Below are positions 45,811 through 63,182 of a DNA stretch of 64,000 nucleotides, piece by piece (positions within the stretch are counted from its first letter, which is position 1; every line of letters starts with the position of its first letter). The stretch is from assembly GCA_026003075.1 (NCBI GenBank), contig BPGO01000001.1, forward strand, positions 62,001 to 126,000. The letters run 5' to 3'. Position numbers and translations under genes: made by a program. The stretch is from Fimbriimonadales bacterium. Lineage in GTDB: Bacteria; Armatimonadota; Fimbriimonadia; Fimbriimonadales; GBS-DC. Under the pieces are notes generated by a model. That model had not been told where the DNA came from. It ran no database searches and saw only the letters and a list, made by a program, of their open reading frames with translations.

Positions 45811-45888
45811 CACTGTGCCTCCTATAGGGATTGGTGTTCCACCTGGCATCGCCATCTCCTGCTATGATGTGTCCGATCGAGGGTTAGG

Positions 45889-46051
45889 AAGTTCCCCGTC
45901 GTTGAGGTTATCGTTTCCGTCGTCGAGGTTATCGTTTCCGTCGTCAAGGTTATCGTTTCCGTCGTCAAGGTTATCGTTTCCATCGCCTACGTTATCGATT
46001 CCGTCGTCAAGGTTATCGTTTCCGTCGTCAAGGTTATCGTTTCTGGCGTTG
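45889..46051. repeat. Minisatellite, 21-bp unit AGGTTATCGTTTCCGTCGTCA, about 7 units
   Basis: Units begin at 45905, 45926, 45947, 45968, 45989, 46010, 46031; degenerate first half-unit. Confidence 0.95.
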
Positions 46052-46081
46052 AAGGTGGTTGGAAAGCATCCCCCGCTCAGC
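46046..46081. repeat. 36-bp direct repeat, copy B (overlaps histidine kinase stop codon)
   Basis: Identical to 44069-44104. Confidence 0.9.
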
Positions 46082-50752: not shown

Positions 50753-52249
50753 TCAATCGTACAGCGCATCCAGATAGCGCTTCAGCACTTCGTCCACCAC
50801 GCCCCGAAACGGCAACGAGTTCGCCATGCCGTAAATCGGCGCCATTTCCCCTTTCTCATCGGGATGCGCCTTAACATAGTCCACCGCGTCGCGCAGGTCG
50901 CGCAGGAACGCCTCAGCAACGCCCGGCTGGGCGTGGCGAATCGTAACGGCGAAATGTAATCCGGGCGGGCGCTGCAACGCCGTCAGACGCCAGCCCCGCA
51001 GTGCCATCTGATCGAAAACCTGGTAGATGTTCAGTTTCTCTTGCGCGTTGGTGAACGCAATCAGAAACAGCGGCTCGCCCATCAATTTGAGTTCGGGCAT
51101 CTGCTCAATCCCCTTGCGTATCTGCTTGGCGGTCTCCATAATTGGGCGAGCGCACTCCAGATAGCCCTGCTTACCGATAGAGACCATTGCCGCCCAGCCT
51201 GCCACGCTCAACGCGCCGGGACGACTGCCTGGCAAGGTCGGAGAGGCATATAAACCGCCCTGCCAGTCGGTTGCCGTGAAATACTGGTAGCGTCGCAACC
51301 GCCGCCCACGATATAACACAACCGACAGCCCTTTTGGGGTGTAGCCGTACTTATGCGGGTCTACCGAAATGGAGGTCACACCTTCCACTCGGAAGTCGAA
51401 CGGAGTCACGGGGTAGCCCAACGCCTCAATAAACGGCAGCAGAAATCCCCCTAAGCAACCGTCTACATGCATCCCTATCCCGTACTGTTTCGCCATCTGC
51501 GCGATCTGCGGGATGGGGTCAATCACGCCGTGCGGATAGCCCGGTGCGGAGCCGACCAGCGCAATCGTGTTGCGCGTGATCGCCCGATGCATCGCCTCCA
51601 AGTTCGCCTTGAAGTCGTCGCCGACGGGGGTGCGAATCAATTTGATACAGAACAGGTGCGCCGCCTTATCGAAGGCGGGATGTGCCGTTTCCGGGGCGAT
51701 GACTTCTGGCTCGGTAATTCCCTTCTCCGCATGCGCCCAGTCGCGGTAGGTCTTCATCGCCAGCAGAATGCTCTCTGTGCCTCCTGAAGTGGTTGTGCCC
51801 ACCACTTGCTGTTCGGGGTCATCTGTAGCGGGTGCGTTGAGCAGGTTCGCTGTCATCCGCACAATCTCCGCTTCGAACTTAATCGTGCTTGGGAACAGGT
51901 CGGCGTGGAGGGGGTTGCTTTGGGAATGGAGGGCGTAGACTTGGCTCAGGAACGCGCTATGCTCGGCGCCGCCGTGATAGACCGTTCCCGACACGCGCCC
52001 CTGTTCCCAGACGGGGGTCTCCTGCTGACGCAAGTGTTGAAGCCACTCCAGAATCTGCTCTTGAGGAATGCCCTGTTCAGGCAGTTGGTCAAAATCGGGC
52101 AGCGTCTCCAGTTTGGGGCGCATTTTGGATCGTACCATCGCCTCCACCTGTGCGTACTCCGCTTCCAACCGCCGCTGCACGGCAGGAATCCGCTGTGCTG
52201 CCTTCTCCGCGCCCCGCACCACACCCTGCCAAATGCGTTTCAGCCCCAT
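50753..52249 (-). CDS. PLP-dependent decarboxylase/lyase (glutamate decarboxylase / sphingosine-1-phosphate lyase-like)
   Basis: [57 protein letters not shown] (PLP lysine). Confidence 0.88.
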
Positions 52250-52274
52250 AACGCGAGGGATTGTACCCGAACCC

Positions 52275-52356
52275 CACCCCCTTGACGCGCAGGAGAAAGA
52301 GCGGGTATAATAGTGGCGTCTAAGGAAGGCGAAGGAGACGCACATCAGTGGAGGAA
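52275..52356 (+). repeat. 82-bp direct repeat, copy 1 (atp promoter/leader/start duplicate upstream of RM genes)
   Basis: CACCCCCTTGACGCGCAGGAGAAAGAGCGGGTATAATAGTGGCGTCTAAGGAAGGCGAAGGAGACGCACATCAGTGGAGGAA, identical to 54867-54948. Confidence 0.97.
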
Positions 52357-52419
52357 GTCTGCCCCACCGAACACCTACGATGCGTTAGCAACCAGCGCGG
52401 CAGTCTCAGCAGGTTCTGA
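52348..52419 (+). CDS. Chimeric leader peptide: first three atpB codons fused to foreign sequence
   Basis: GTG GAG GAA GTC...: [23 protein letters not shown]; stop 16 nt before the methyltransferase ATG. Confidence 0.35.
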
Positions 52420-52435
52420 GGAAGGGACGCAGGCA

Positions 52436-53875
52436 ATGATAGGTAATGCAAGCGAGCGAAAACGACGGCGCGCTTTAGGTGAGCATCTTACGCCCAGTCA
52501 GGTCTTTCAGGACTATGTGCTGCCTGCACTGATGCCCCTGCGTACGCACTATCGCTGGGTAGATATGTTTGCAGGCGCAGGCGACCTAATCTTCCCCCTG
52601 CTGGAACAGACGCCTCACGAAGAACGTACCGAGTTCTTTCGCGAGCATATCTTTTTGTATGATATACAGCCAGAAATGGTGGAGCGGTGTGTGCAGCGAG
52701 CAATTCAGTTGGGAATCCCTGAACAGGTTGCGCGTCAGAACATCCGCTGTCAGGATACGCTCGCGCATTATCCCACTGAAATTCTTGACAGCCGCCTGCC
52801 GGTCTATCATGTAACAAATCCCCCCTATCTCTACCTGGGGTATATCGTCAAGCACCCTGAGACACAACCATACTTACACTATTTCAAGGGCATGAACGAG
52901 GGTTATCAGGACCTATATCAAATTGCGCTCATCAACGACTTGAGACACAATCTACCGCGCATGGTCTACATCATTCCCACCAACTTTCTGTTTGGGTTCT
53001 CCAACTCTAACAAAATCCGCGATGACTTCCTGCCGTTCTACGCGATAGAAAAGGCGATTATTCTGGAGAAGGATTTGTTCGAGTATACGGGCGTGCATGT
53101 GGCAGTCTGTTTTTTCAGGCGCAAAACAAAACCCGCTCGCGAAGTGCAGACATTCGAAGGGCTGAAAATCAACCATGCGGTACAATCACGCTTGTACCGC
53201 CTCTCGCCTGCCTATCACTACCGTGCAGGTGCCGAATTTGAGGAGTTTACTACGCAGTTTCGCGCCTCCCGTCCTCTCAGGGTGGAATACTACCTGTATC
53301 AATCGACAGTGGAGCAACACCCAGGAGAACACCGTCTCTGTCTTGTGGATGCGAATGAGTTCACGGGTAGGGATTACCGCCGATTCACAGCGCCAGTAGA
53401 TGAGGTTCTTTTCTCTCGTGTACGGGCTAATCCGCTCTTTGTGCGCACTCTGGACACTGGAACAGCAGACGGACGCGCTGGACTGTATTTAATCCCTGAG
53501 GTGTTTCAAGCGGATGGAATCGTAATCACTCGATCGCCCTACCGTACTCATCCGATCCATGTCTTTCTGGAGCCGACCTTGCCCTATGAGGATGTGATTC
53601 TGCTACGCGATTATTTCAACCTTCTGCTCGAGCATTTTCGCTCTCGCACAGATAGCGAATTCCTGACAACCTACAAATATTCCGAAAGTGCATACACACG
53701 CAAATATCTGGGACTCTCTCAAGCAAGAGCGCTGATAGAAACTTTTCCGTATTGTGACATATCGCTTGCACAGCGTGAGGCGCTTAGAGAGGCTGTGAAC
53801 GAGCGCGATGCAGAAAAAGTGATAGCGCTCTTGGAGAGCTTTCGGAACAGTGGCAACCTGCGACTATGCCTATGA
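52436..53875 (+). CDS. Type II restriction-modification N6-adenine DNA methyltransferase (gamma-class)
   Basis: ERKRRRALGEHLTPSQVFQDYVLPAL; motif I WVDMFAGAGDLIFPL; motif IV HVTNPPYLYLGY. Confidence 0.88.
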   Translation: MIGNASERKRRRALGEHLTPSQVFQDYVLPALMPLRTHYRWVDMFAGAGDLIFPLLEQTPHEERTEFFREHIFLYDIQPEMVERCVQRAIQLGIPEQVARQNIRCQDTLAHYPTEILDSRLPVYHVTNPPYLYLGYIVKHPETQPYLHYFKGMNEGYQDLYQIALINDLRHNLPRMVYIIPTNFLFGFSNSNKIRDDFLPFYAIEKAIILEKDLFEYTGVHVAVCFFRRKTKPAREVQTFEGLKINHAVQSRLYRLSPAYHYRAGAEFEEFTTQFRASRPLRVEYYLYQSTVEQHPGEHRLCLVDANEFTGRDYRRFTAPVDEVLFSRVRANPLFVRTLDTGTADGRAGLYLIPEVFQADGIVITRSPYRTHPIHVFLEPTLPYEDVILLRDYFNLLLEHFRSRTDSEFLTTYKYSESAYTRKYLGLSQARALIETFPYCDISLAQREALREAVNERDAEKVIALLESFRNSGNLRLCL

Positions 53876-54858
53876 AGCAGAATATCGAGTATTGGGTTCT
53901 CTCCCTTACGCACCCTGAAATAACAGGCGAAAGTGTTTACGGTCGCGATGAGATTATTGTCCAAGATAGTGCCTATCTGGAAGCAGTGAATCGCCTGAGA
54001 GAGCATATTACTGCTTATTGCGTCCTGAAAGAGTTAGGCGAGAACAACGAAACGAGGCGGCGAGTGTTGATCGAAATCGACGCTCTCCTGCGCAGCGTGG
54101 ATAAGATCCAATACACCGAGTTTGTCGCTTACTGGAAATGCTTGGATTTTACCTTCAGTATTTACCTTAAGATTTCCGACGACCCGCAGCGATACACACT
54201 GCTTGAAAACGCCCTTGAGAACTATTGTGAACACAGACGCAGGCTTTATGATAGACTGGGCTACACTCCTGTGATTCAACAGGCTCTCTACGACAGTGCA
54301 AAAGCACGTTCACAGGGAGTTTCAGGTTTTCAGAAGCTCCAGCAAATCTTGCAACAAGCGATTGGCAAGGAAGTGCCTACCGTGAGCTGCCTCACAGATT
54401 TTGTCTCATGTCAGCTCTGTCAGTTCGTACCGAGCAGCAACAAACAGGAACTATTTCGCGAGATTATGCAGAGCCTGCACGCCAAATACGAATTTGGAGC
54501 AATGTATCAGAAAAAGGTTCCTGACCTCATGGTGAAGGTGAGGGAGAAGGTCTTCGTGATAGAGGCAAAACACATCAAAGAACCAGGCGGTGCCCAGAAT
54601 AAGCAGATAGCGGAGCTGATCAGCTACATTCGGCAAAAGGAGGGCAGGCAATCGCCCGTTCGCTACATAGCGTTTCTCGATGGGCTTTATTTCAACCTAC
54701 TTGCTGGCGCCACAGAGAACACGAAACTCGCGCATCAGCGTCAAGAGATAGTGGACGCACTCAAAGAAAACCCATGCAACTACTTTGTGAATACAGTCGG
54801 TTTGCTACACCTATTTCAAGACGCTTTCTCAGAGACGCTCCAGGGCAAAGCCAAGTGA
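53866..54858 (+). CDS. Type II restriction endonuclease (PD-(D/E)XK)
   Basis: Overlaps methyltransferase 3' end; PDLMVKVREKVFVIEAKHIKEPGGAQNKQIAELISYIRQKEG. Confidence 0.75.
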   Translation: MPMKQNIEYWVLSLTHPEITGESVYGRDEIIVQDSAYLEAVNRLREHITAYCVLKELGENNETRRRVLIEIDALLRSVDKIQYTEFVAYWKCLDFTFSIYLKISDDPQRYTLLENALENYCEHRRRLYDRLGYTPVIQQALYDSAKARSQGVSGFQKLQQILQQAIGKEVPTVSCLTDFVSCQLCQFVPSSNKQELFREIMQSLHAKYEFGAMYQKKVPDLMVKVREKVFVIEAKHIKEPGGAQNKQIAELISYIRQKEGRQSPVRYIAFLDGLYFNLLAGATENTKLAHQRQEIVDALKENPCNYFVNTVGLLHLFQDAFSETLQGKAK

Positions 54859-54866
54859 TGCCGCTA

Positions 54867-54948
54867 CACCCCCTTGACGCGCAGGAGAAAGAGCGGGTAT
54901 AATAGTGGCGTCTAAGGAAGGCGAAGGAGACGCACATCAGTGGAGGAA
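54867..54948 (+). repeat. 82-bp direct repeat, copy 2 (native atpB promoter, leader and start)
   Basis: Identical to 52275-52356. Confidence 0.97.
54874..54903 (+). promoter_or_regulatory. Putative sigma70-type promoter of atp operon (TTGACG ... TATAAT)
   Basis: -35 TTGACG, 18-bp spacer, -10 TATAAT inside the repeat. Confidence 0.65.
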
Positions 54949-55695
54949 CAGCTGAACACGATTTGGCTTTTGACTCAGACGGGCATCGGAGCGCATGTGC
55001 CACCGCCCGTTTTTTCTGTGCTATCGGGCATCGCGGCGCTGGCGCTGCTGGTCTTTGCATTCGCTGCCACGCGCAATCTACAAAAGCGTCCAGGCCGCCT
55101 GCAGAACCTCGCCGAGGTCATCTATGAATTCTTCGATAACCTCGCTGTGAGCGTTGTGGGCGAACACGGGCGCAAATATGTCCCCCTCGCAGGCACGATT
55201 TTCCTGTTTGTTCTGTTCAGCAATCTGATGGGCTTAATTCCTCCGGGCATCGCTCCCACCGCCAGCCTCAACACGACGATTGCCCTCGCATTGATTGTAA
55301 TTATCTATGTTCAATACGAGGGGATACGGGCGCGTGGGATTATCGGCTACCTAAAGCATTTCGCACGGTGGGGCGAAGTGCCTGTGCTGCTTTCGCCCTT
55401 GCTGTTTATCATCGAAATCGTCAGTGAGTTAGCAAAGCCGGTATCGCTCTCCATCCGTCTGTATGCCAACATGTTTGGCAAGGAGCAGGTCACGATGGCG
55501 CTGATTACCGCGCTGGCGATGCCTATCTTCAAGGCGATTTACCTGCCCTTGCCCATCCAATTCCCGGTGATGCTGCTCGGAGTGCTGGTGGCGTTTGTGC
55601 AGGCGTTTGTGTTCTCCATTCTGACGCTCATTTATCTGGCGCTGGCGACCGAACACCACGAGGAACATCACGGCGAACACGCCCATGCGCATTAA
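54940..55695 (+). CDS. atpB: F-type ATP synthase subunit a
   Basis: NLMGLIPPGIAPTASLNTTIALALIV; ELAKPVSLSIRLYANMFGKEQV. Confidence 0.95.
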   Translation: MEEQLNTIWLLTQTGIGAHVPPPVFSVLSGIAALALLVFAFAATRNLQKRPGRLQNLAEVIYEFFDNLAVSVVGEHGRKYVPLAGTIFLFVLFSNLMGLIPPGIAPTASLNTTIALALIVIIYVQYEGIRARGIIGYLKHFARWGEVPVLLSPLLFIIEIVSELAKPVSLSIRLYANMFGKEQVTMALITALAMPIFKAIYLPLPIQFPVMLLGVLVAFVQAFVFSILTLIYLALATEHHEEHHGEHAHAH

Positions 55696-61339: not shown

Positions 61340-61391
61340 AGCATTCTAAGTGAGAGGAACTTTCAATACCTCGCCGAACAGTATAAACACT

Positions 61392-63182
61392 ATGACAGAA
61401 AAGGAACGATTGGAGCAAGAACCAGAACTCACCGAACCGATCGAAACCGATGCCGAGCCAGAACCGCTGCCCGAACAGGAGGAGTTCTGGCGTCCGCCTG
61501 TGCGCTTCGGAAGCGTTCCCGTCGAAAAAGAGCCGCTCGGCTGGGATCGGCGTAAGGGCTTTTACAAGCTCTACCCGCGCGTCAGCCTGCCGTTCCAAAT
61601 CGTGGAGCGCGTCTCGTTCGGCAATCCCAACCTGCCGCCCAATCGACTTATCTGGGGCGACAACCTGCATGTGATGCGCCAACTGCCCAGCGAAAGCATC
61701 GACCTCATCTATATCGACCCGCCGTTCTTCTCGGGCAGGCAATACAATGTGATTTTCGGCGACCAGAACGAGGTGCGCTCCTTCAACGACATCTGGGAGG
61801 GCGGAATGCCCGGCTACCTCGTGTGGCTGAACGCCCGCCTCTACGAAATGAAACGCCTACTGAAAAAGACAGGCAGCATCTATGTCCACTGCGACTGGCA
61901 CGCCAGCCACTACATCAAAGTGGAAATGGATAAGATTTTTGGGTATGAGAATTTTTTGAATGAAATTATATGGCATTATGACTATGGGGCGAGAAGCAAA
62001 CGGTATTTCGGTAGGAAACACGATTGCATACTTTGGTACAAGAAAACCAATGAATATAATTTCTACTCGGAAAATATTCTGGTTCCCTATGAAAGCAAGA
62101 TGACCCTATGGCGATACACAAAGGGTGGGCAAGCAGGCAAACCTATGCCTCAGGGCAAAATTCCATCAGATGTTTGGGACATCAAAATTAACGCTATGTC
62201 AAAAGAACGCATTGGCTACCCCACCCAAAAGCCCGAAGCCTTAATTGAACGCATCATCAAAGCCTCTACGAAGGAAGGCGATATTGTCGCAGACTTTTTC
62301 TGTGGGGGTGGCACGACGCCTGCGGTGGCGCAGCGTCTGGGCAGGCGGTGGATTGCGTGCGATCAGTCGCGCGTGGCGATTGCGGTCACTGCTGATCGCT
62401 TGGTTCGCGGCGCGGAGCAGCTGACCACCGATAACCCCACGCCCGACTTCACGATTGAATACTGGGGCGTGTATGAGGCGCGACGCTTGCAGAAAATGCC
62501 CCCGAACGAGTTTCGCGCCTTCATCCTGCGGTGCTTTGGGGCGCGCCCAGAAAACAAGTTTGCCGGGATTCATGGCTTCAAAGGGAGCGTGCCCGTGTGG
62601 GTGTGCGAGCCAGACCCGAAGCGGCGTGTGGAACCGCAGGATGTGGTGCAGTTCGCCAACGCCATCCGCCGCACGCCACACTATCAGCAGGCGAACCTGC
62701 GCGACGGCATCATGCTGGGCTGGGCGTTCAACCACAAAGCCCAAACAGCCGCCGAACAACTCCGCGCCCGCCAAAATACCGACATCCACTTCATCCGACT
62801 GGAGCTGATACGCATCGATTCACCCCGATTCCGCGAGCATATCACTCGCCTCTCCACCGACCACGCCGACTATGAGAACTTTCTCACCTTCGTGTTGCCG
62901 CCGCTGGTCTCGGTTGCCTACAAACGCATCGCCCCCCTCACTTACAAGTTCGATATTAGCGACACAACGGTGCAGAACCCAGGCGCGAATTTAATCAATG
63001 TGCAGTGGGACTTCAACTACGACGGCAGGCGGTTCCGCAGTGCGCAGGGCTACGCGCTTAAGAAGGCAGCCGAACCTGTGGTCTATAAGTTCCCATGTGC
63101 AGGGCGCTATGTGGTTGCCTGCAAGGTGCAAGACGACAAGGGCGGCGAAGGCTTCTGGTCAGAAGAGATTGCGGTGAGTTGA
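61392..63182 (+). CDS. Site-specific DNA methyltransferase (beta-class N4/N6), apparently orphan, with long C-terminal extension
   Basis: IDLIYIDPPFFSGRQYNVIFGD (motif IV) before IGYPTQKPEALIERII...VADFFCGGGTTPAVAQRLGRRWIACDQS (motif I). Confidence 0.88.
   Translation: MTEKERLEQEPELTEPIETDAEPEPLPEQEEFWRPPVRFGSVPVEKEPLGWDRRKGFYKLYPRVSLPFQIVERVSFGNPNLPPNRLIWGDNLHVMRQLPSESIDLIYIDPPFFSGRQYNVIFGDQNEVRSFNDIWEGGMPGYLVWLNARLYEMKRLLKKTGSIYVHCDWHASHYIKVEMDKIFGYENFLNEIIWHYDYGARSKRYFGRKHDCILWYKKTNEYNFYSENILVPYESKMTLWRYTKGGQAGKPMPQGKIPSDVWDIKINAMSKERIGYPTQKPEALIERIIKASTKEGDIVADFFCGGGTTPAVAQRLGRRWIACDQSRVAIAVTADRLVRGAEQLTTDNPTPDFTIEYWGVYEARRLQKMPPNEFRAFILRCFGARPENKFAGIHGFKGSVPVWVCEPDPKRRVEPQDVVQFANAIRRTPHYQQANLRDGIMLGWAFNHKAQTAAEQLRARQNTDIHFIRLELIRIDSPRFREHITRLSTDHADYENFLTFVLPPLVSVAYKRIAPLTYKFDISDTTVQNPGANLINVQWDFNYDGRRFRSAQGYALKKAAEPVVYKFPCAGRYVVACKVQDDKGGEGFWSEEIAVS

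What the first reader, a model, noticed from the sequence alone, without database searches (positions are those of the whole stretch)
52275..54948. RM system inserted with an 82-bp target duplication that captured the ATP synthase promoter
An 82-bp perfect direct repeat (52275-52356 and 54867-54948, period 2592 bp) brackets a two-gene restriction-modification cassette. The repeat is the whole atp promoter (TTGACG-18-TATAAT), leader, Shine-Dalgarno region and first three atpB codons (GTG GAG GAA). Copy 2 still drives atpB and copy 1 now sits upstream of the methyltransferase. No transposase, integrase or terminal inverted repeats are visible. Insertion with long target duplication has been described for RM loci (from memory, Helicobacter pylori); here the duplicated target is an essential-operon promoter. 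It would give the RM genes housekeeping-level expression and leave atp intact. Homologous recombination across the repeat would excise the cassette precisely, which could also trigger post-segregational killing.
Basis: partly seen in the sequence, partly recalled or inferred. Interest (0 to 1): 0.85.

Follow-up and report, generated by a model that had tools for sequence, protein, structure and literature searches.

The report
Restriction-modification cassette duplicated ATP-synthase promoter
A two-gene DNA-cutting/DNA-protecting cassette has inserted at the promoter of a bacterium's ATP synthase operon and doubled that promoter, so the newcomer gets an expression signal while the essential operon keeps its own; the same genome holds two more such insertions at other essential genes, so this looks like a recurrent way for these selfish genes to move without a known transposase.

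Summary
An exact 82-bp direct repeat (52275-52356, 54867-54948; only two copies in the genome) brackets a complete two-gene type II-like R-M cassette between a decarboxylase gene and atpB. A close relative (G005) has the predicted empty site: decarboxylase gene, same left flank, one promoter copy, atpB. The promoter reading is supported by conservation in relatives. The insert holds no transposase, integrase or terminal inverted repeats.

Beyond the finding, I scanned 1.94 of 2.60 Mb of the same genome for two-copy direct repeats. Two further R-M pairs lie between duplicated host sequence: the leuS 5' end (about 74 bp; empty site in G005) and the polA 3' end (85 bp; shared with G005, absent in nine congeners). 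A HEPN-MNT module and a VapBC-type module are also bracketed by diverged, apparently host-derived repeats. In all three R-M cases the first R-M gene starts at or just after the stop of a host reading frame, so host signals probably drive it.

R-M insertion with long target duplication (about 100 bp) is already described. What is new is its recurrence in one Fimbriimonadales genome, the capture of essential-gene 5' ends, and a possible extension to toxin-antitoxin modules. Integration enzymology, expression and excision are untested.

The parts
50753..52249 (-). left flanking host gene, pyridoxal-dependent decarboxylase (group II), divergent from the cassette
   Evidence: PF00282 3.6e-23; present in nearly all congeners
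52260..52265 (-). probable -10 box (TACAAT) of the decarboxylase gene; marks the undisturbed left flank of copy 1
   Evidence: ATTGTACC conserved just upstream of the decarboxylase start in most congeners; function inferred
52275..52356 (+). copy 1 of the 82-bp direct repeat: atp promoter, leader, SD region, first three atpB codons; its left flank is the ancestral one
52282..52311 (+). promoter in copy 1, TTGACG-18-TATAAT, the only strong promoter found ahead of the methyltransferase
   Evidence: conserved in relatives at atpB
52348..52419 (+). 23-codon minigene started by the copied atpB GTG codon ([23 protein letters not shown]), ending 16 nt before the methyltransferase ATG
   Evidence: translation and coupling inferred
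52357..54866 (+). inserted segment (2510 bp), R-M cassette without its own recognisable promoter, ends 8 bp after the nuclease stop
52436..53875 (+). DNA adenine/cytosine-N4 methyltransferase (motifs FAGAG and NPPY), 479 aa
   Evidence: PF02384 1.1e-8; homologues 56-75% identical in 9 relatives at other loci
53872..54858 (+). restriction endonuclease, Tsp45I-like, PD-(D/E)XK motif (P217 D218 ... E231-x-K233 invariant)
   Evidence: PF06300 7e-4 below cut-off; three-way alignment with 43% and 26% identical homologues
54867..54948 (+). copy 2 of the 82-bp repeat, still leading atpB
54940..55695 (+). atpB (F0 subunit a), first gene of the atp operon, intact
   Evidence: PF00119 6.9e-60

Best explanation
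A mobile type II-like R-M unit (methyltransferase then nuclease, translationally coupled) inserted between the decarboxylase gene and atpB and duplicated 82 bp of target, namely the whole atp promoter, leader, ribosome-binding site and first three atpB codons. Copy 2 rebuilds an intact atp operon. Copy 1 supplies the otherwise promoterless cassette with transcription and with a short translated minigene that stops 16 nt before the methyltransferase. Shown by sequence: the repeat, its two-copy status, the empty site in a close relative, the intact genes, and the lack of transposase or inverted repeats. Inferred: that the duplication arose during insertion (for example by a widely staggered break, by microhomology-driven replication, or by homologous integration of a circle carrying the promoter), and that copy 1 is active. 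The same architecture at leuS and polA in this genome suggests one recurrent process, filtered by selection for insertions that leave essential genes intact and that put the cassette under host signals.
For: Exact repeat and two-copy status. Empty site in G005 with the same left flank and a single promoter; G009 also has decarboxylase gene next to atpB with one promoter, separated by a different 340-bp insert. Neither gene's homologue found in G005. Promoter conservation. R-M identity. Foreign composition, 50.1% versus 58.5% G+C, and the closest methyltransferase relative in another genus (75%). Second and third cases in the same genome: leuS with empty site in G005 and polA. Unbiased repeat survey: 3 of 18 two-copy direct repeats bracket a DNA methyltransferase against 0.31 expected, P 0.0027; leaving out the prompting case the excess is two cases and weaker. 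Minigene or stop-start arrangement in all three. Known precedent for R-M units: PMC3874152.
Against: Metagenome-assembled genome, no reads available, so an assembly or strain-mixture cause is not formally excluded. No transcript data. The chemistry of insertion is not shown. An empty site could also be produced by precise excision rather than be ancestral. In G005 the two polA copies differ in a coding-like pattern (10 of 14 differences at third codon positions), which a simple duplicate-then-decay model does not explain.
Confidence: 0.85

Rival explanations
1. Campbell-type integration: a circular R-M molecule that already carried an atp-promoter copy, from the same or a very close population, integrated by a single homologous crossover, giving the same repeat structure.
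For: Produces identical flanks without transposase. The two 85-bp polA copies in G005 look like two different polA lineages in their middle part, as recombination between donor and host sequence might give.
Against: Needs an earlier event that joined the promoter to the cassette. Three unrelated R-M pairs each match a different host locus, so each would need its own captured host segment. 82 bp is short for homologous integration.
Confidence: 0.15
2. A mobile element with a lost or trans-acting transposase/integrase, the repeats being its target-site or att duplication.
For: The polA 3'-end site resembles att sites used by integrases, which often lie at gene 3' ends (general knowledge).
Against: No transposase or integrase gene and no terminal inverted repeats in the insert. 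Duplication length and sequence differ among the three cases (82, 85, about 74 bp), two lie at 5' ends and one at a 3' end. Known transposase target duplications are far shorter.
Confidence: 0.07
3. Assembly artefact or chimaera: one promoter copied by the assembler when strains with and without the cassette were merged.
For: Metagenome-assembled genome with 84% completeness. The G005 assembly itself breaks at this promoter.
Against: The locus lies deep inside a 556-kb contig. The left flank of copy 1 and the right flank of copy 2 are exactly those joined in G005. Two more loci show the same architecture, and the polA case is also present in an independently assembled relative.
Confidence: 0.04

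Closest known systems
R-M units inserted with long target duplication (Nobusato et al. 2000 Gene 259:99; Furuta et al. 2010 NAR 38:2428), as summarised in PMC3874152 and PMC3031569
   Same: Complete R-M unit, no linked mobile element, flanked by direct repeats of host sequence in the order of 100 bp and of variable length, single copy at the empty site of a relative.
   Different: Different phylum (Armatimonadota). Targets here are the 5' ends of atpB and leuS, so promoter, ribosome-binding site and start codon are duplicated and feed the cassette, and a polA 3' end. Whether the original papers include promoter-capturing cases could not be checked, as they are not held in the library.
R-M units with short target duplications and imperfect terminal inverted repeats (MITE-like), mentioned in PMC3874152
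   Same: R-M unit moves on its own.
   Different: No inverted repeats at the ends and a duplication far longer.
IS-flanked composite R-M transposons and IS-linked R-M movement (PMC3031569)
   Same: R-M genes between direct repeats that could recombine.
   Different: The repeats are host promoter or gene ends, not IS copies; 82 bp, two copies in the genome.

Membership tests
R-M insertion with long target duplication | complete R-M gene unit as the inserted DNA | tested here: met
   MTase plus PD-(D/E)XK nuclease, both intact, insert limited to them
R-M insertion with long target duplication | flanking direct repeats of host sequence, order of 100 bp | tested here: met
   82 bp exact, is the host atp promoter
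R-M insertion with long target duplication | empty site with one copy in a related genome | tested here: met
   G005 C258/C297 joined by a 99-bp overlap
R-M insertion with long target duplication | no associated transposase, integrase or IS | tested here: met
   ORF list and Pfam of the insert
R-M insertion with long target duplication | duplication created by the insertion event itself | not testable with these tools
   needs a laboratory insertion or population reads
Type II restriction-modification system | DNA methyltransferase with SAM-binding and catalytic motifs | tested here: met
   PF02384 1.1e-8, FAGAG and NPPY motifs
Type II restriction-modification system | cognate restriction endonuclease | tested here: inconclusive
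   PF06300 Tsp45I 7e-4, below curated cut-off; PD...ExK invariant in three homologues; paired with an MTase homologue in G016 as well
Type II restriction-modification system | methylation and cleavage of a shared site | not testable with these tools
   needs methylome data or purified enzymes
Composite transposon / IS element | IS copies or terminal inverted repeats with transposase | tested here: not met

The most novel reading that the evidence does not exclude
This lineage has a transposase-free integration route for addiction modules in general (R-M pairs and toxin-antitoxin pairs) that duplicates roughly 60-90 bp of target. Because only insertions that rebuild essential genes survive, modules accumulate under captured 5' signals of essential genes, with the truncated host coding start translated as a leader coupled to the first module gene.
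Probability: 0.35. Interest if true: 0.8.

Novelty: new variant of a known kind. Interest (0 to 1): 0.66.

Why it matters
How R-M systems spread without a transposase has been an open question since long target duplications were first reported. Here one genome offers three R-M cases, two with an empty site in the same close relative, and a shared polA case whose two copies can be compared between species. Promoter and start-codon capture from essential genes would explain how a promoterless cassette is expressed in a new position, and why a long duplication is tolerated or even required at essential operons. If the toxin-antitoxin cases hold, the phenomenon belongs to addiction modules as a class rather than to R-M only.

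Tried and rejected
(1) A 97-bp exact repeat near trpA (C1:353900/354844) and an 81-bp repeat (C5:33230/33958) bracket PIN toxins, but the repeat is the antitoxin gene's own 5' end, so they were not counted as target duplications. (2) C5:68356/69046 is a Uma2-type paralogue duplication; the other two-copy repeats looked like repeat proteins, paralogues or undefined sequence. (3) The idea that the 79 bp before the methyltransferase is the 3' end of an ECF sigma gene (which precedes the MTase homologue in G008/G011/G012): only an 11-bp match at a similar distance and no significant DNA hit; not adopted. (4) Flanking repeats at the nine MTase homologue loci of relatives: none beyond a local tandem repeat. 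(5) Carriage of the nuclease on viral contigs or plasmids: none found; genome-contig scan with the MTase: none. (6) Dating by repeat identity: rejected as a clock because the polA copies are identical in G000 although the insertion is shared with G005 at 91% nucleotide identity. (7) Dispersed-family and IS explanations for the 82-mer: rejected. (9) Structure prediction was not run: only window or certain fetched proteins are admitted, and a single-sequence model would add little to the motif evidence.

Full report
WHAT IS THERE. The window lies in a 556-kb contig of a metagenome-assembled genome (2.60 Mb, 18 contigs, 84% complete) whose congeners are hot-spring Fimbriimonadales/Armatimonadota (for example KatS3mg018, JP3_11). 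The exact 82-bp repeat at 52275-52356 and 54867-54948 occurs only twice in the genome. Each copy holds TTGACG-18-TATAAT, a leader and GTG GAG GAA of atpB. In relatives the -35 and extended -10 boxes and the leader just before atpB are conserved while the spacer drifts, so the block is the atp promoter. The insert between the copies (52357-54866) is 50.1% G+C against 58.5% for the window and codes for a DNA methyltransferase (PF02384, 1.1e-8) followed, with an ATGA overlap, by a Tsp45I-like nuclease (PF06300, weak). In an alignment with two homologues (43% and 26% identical) the nuclease keeps P218-region PD and E-x-K residues (P217, D218, E231, K233). The insert ends 8 bp after the nuclease stop. 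No other enzyme gene, transposase or terminal inverted repeat is present.

EMPTY SITE. In G005 (decarboxylase 97% identical by amino acid) contig C258 ends, and contig C297 begins, inside a shared stretch of exactly 99 bp; the named record labels its contigs k99, so the two contigs are neighbours in the assembly graph. Joined, they give decarboxylase gene, GGATTGTACC-TAACCCCACCCC, one promoter copy and atpB. The left flank is that of copy 1 and the right flank that of copy 2 in the window, exactly as expected before insertion. G005 has no homologue of either cassette gene in the searches made. In G009 the decarboxylase gene is also next to atpB with one promoter, but a different 340-bp piece lies between, bracketed by a 14-bp repeat GATTGTACCTGATA. 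Methyltransferase homologues (56-75% identical) are in nine relatives at unrelated loci, the nearest in another genus; a nuclease homologue sits beside it only in G016, and a remnant is in G010. This fits horizontal movement.

HOW IT PROBABLY WORKS. Copy 2 leaves atpB with its full promoter and start. Copy 1 is the only strong promoter-like site ahead of the methyltransferase. Four homologues elsewhere carry an extended -10 box about 10 bp before their start, which the 79-bp leader here lacks. The copied atpB start codon opens a 23-codon minigene that stops 16 nt before the methyltransferase ATG, with GAGGAAGG between. Transcription from copy 1 and translational coupling are inferred. Copy 1 also leaves undisturbed the probable -10 box (TACAAT) of the divergent decarboxylase gene. 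Excision by recombination and post-segregational killing are plausible from general knowledge of R-M systems but untested.

THE SAME THING ELSEWHERE IN THE GENOME. I read 1.94 Mb of this genome and listed all two-copy direct repeats of 38-400 bp, at least 80% identical, 0.6-9 kb apart: 18 pairs. Three bracket a DNA methyltransferase; random placement of the same intervals gives 0.31 on average, P 0.0027. The atp case prompted the search, so the independent excess is two. (i) polA: an 85-bp exact repeat, the last 28 codons plus stop of DNA polymerase I, brackets a methyltransferase (PF01555, 3.7e-41) and a downstream 329-aa ORF without Pfam hit, read here as the nuclease; the methyltransferase ATG follows the polA stop within about 5 nt and its likely Shine-Dalgarno lies inside the repeat. 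Nine congeners with the polA end show no R-M there; G005 has the same insertion at 91% identity. (ii) leuS: about 74 bp (92% identical) holding the -10 box and first 19 codons of leucyl-tRNA synthetase brackets a 472-aa ORF (no Pfam hit) and a 591-aa methyltransferase (PF01555 4.6e-8, UPF0020 7e-12). The leuS fragment in copy 1 forms a 25-codon minigene whose TGA overlaps the start of the first cassette gene, and the cassette ends at the methyltransferase stop within a few bases of copy 2. G005 again has the empty site with the copy-1 left flank and a single copy. (iii) Weaker: a HEPN-MNT pair (PF05168 2.7e-24, PF01909 1.6e-10) lies inside an 85-bp, 85%-identical repeat ending in a GGTACAAT box ahead of a downstream gene, and a PIN/antitoxin pair lies inside a diverged duplicate of the 5' end of an oxidoreductase gene (MRQVLQNYRTGEVRV). 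No empty site was checked for these two.

A RECURRENT SLOT? An unrelated dcm-like C5 methyltransferase/vsr/DUF4928 system occurs in only three of the congeners searched: directly beside the decarboxylase gene in G007 and G010, and directly before the atp promoter in G008, whose relative G011 has the same left neighbour and no R-M. A 650-bp contig from another assembly also has a DUF4928 C-terminus-like reading frame running into an atp promoter. Since this genome is very rich in R-M genes (26 PF01555 matches), recurrence at this site is suggestive only.

LIMITS. No reads, so mixed-strain assembly cannot be formally excluded. Identity of copies is not a clock: in G000 the polA copies are identical although the insertion is shared with G005, whose copies differ at 14 of 85 positions, 10 of them third codon positions (P 0.004). 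Gene conversion in G000, or replacement of one copy in G005, could explain this.

RELATION TO KNOWN SYSTEMS. A review by Mruk and Kobayashi states that some R-M systems insert with long and variable (order of 100 bp) target duplications, without linked mobile elements (PMC3874152; also PMC3031569). The window's locus meets every feature of that class that I could test. What I did not find described in the open papers searched is capture of essential-gene 5' ends as expression signals and recurrence across R-M and possibly toxin-antitoxin modules in one genome; the two primary papers are not held, so priority cannot be claimed.

VERDICT. Observation confirmed, interpretation supported, known kind with a functionally interesting variant and unexpected recurrence.

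Noticed in passing
G000 C1:260407-262487 (L163): Second R-M pair with an 85-bp exact duplication of the polA 3' end; shared with G005, where the two copies differ in a coding-like pattern.
   Followed up: yes
G000 C2:121445-124677 (L184): Third R-M pair between about 74-bp duplicates of the leuS promoter and first 19 codons; empty site in G005 C218 (L308).
   Followed up: yes
G000 C2:124621-124740: Relative to G005, leuS in this genome carries two single-base insertions soon after the start, so the native start codon and the body of the gene are in different frames; either assembly error or an altered start.
   Followed up: partly
G000 C2:144544-145648 and C5:136010-137072: HEPN-MNT and PIN/antitoxin modules inside diverged direct repeats that look host-derived (promoter region; 5' end of an oxidoreductase gene).
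   Followed up: partly
L054 (G008), L097 (G007), L098 (G010), L112: Unrelated dcm-like/vsr/DUF4928 R-M system placed directly beside the decarboxylase gene or directly before the atp promoter in congeners.
   Followed up: partly
L049 (G009), 340 bp between decarboxylase gene and atp promoter: Different small insert at the same spot, bracketed by a 14-bp direct repeat GATTGTACCTGATA; short ORF without Pfam match.
   Followed up: partly
window 61350-63182: Another N6/N4 DNA methyltransferase gene (PF01555, 1.1e-51) a few kb downstream of the atp operon; the genome has 26 PF01555 matches.
   Followed up: no
G000 C6:36623-49655: Near-perfect tandem direct duplication with a 6516-bp period that includes a transposase-like segment, next to two methyltransferase genes; could be real or an assembly effect.
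   Followed up: no
G000 C1:353900-354940 and C5:33230-34038: PIN toxins bracketed by exact or near-exact duplicates of the antitoxin gene's 5' end; cause unclear.
   Followed up: partly
window 45875-46070: Tandem 21-bp repeat array (CCGTCGTCAAGGTTATCGTTT), also seen in the repeat scan.
   Followed up: no
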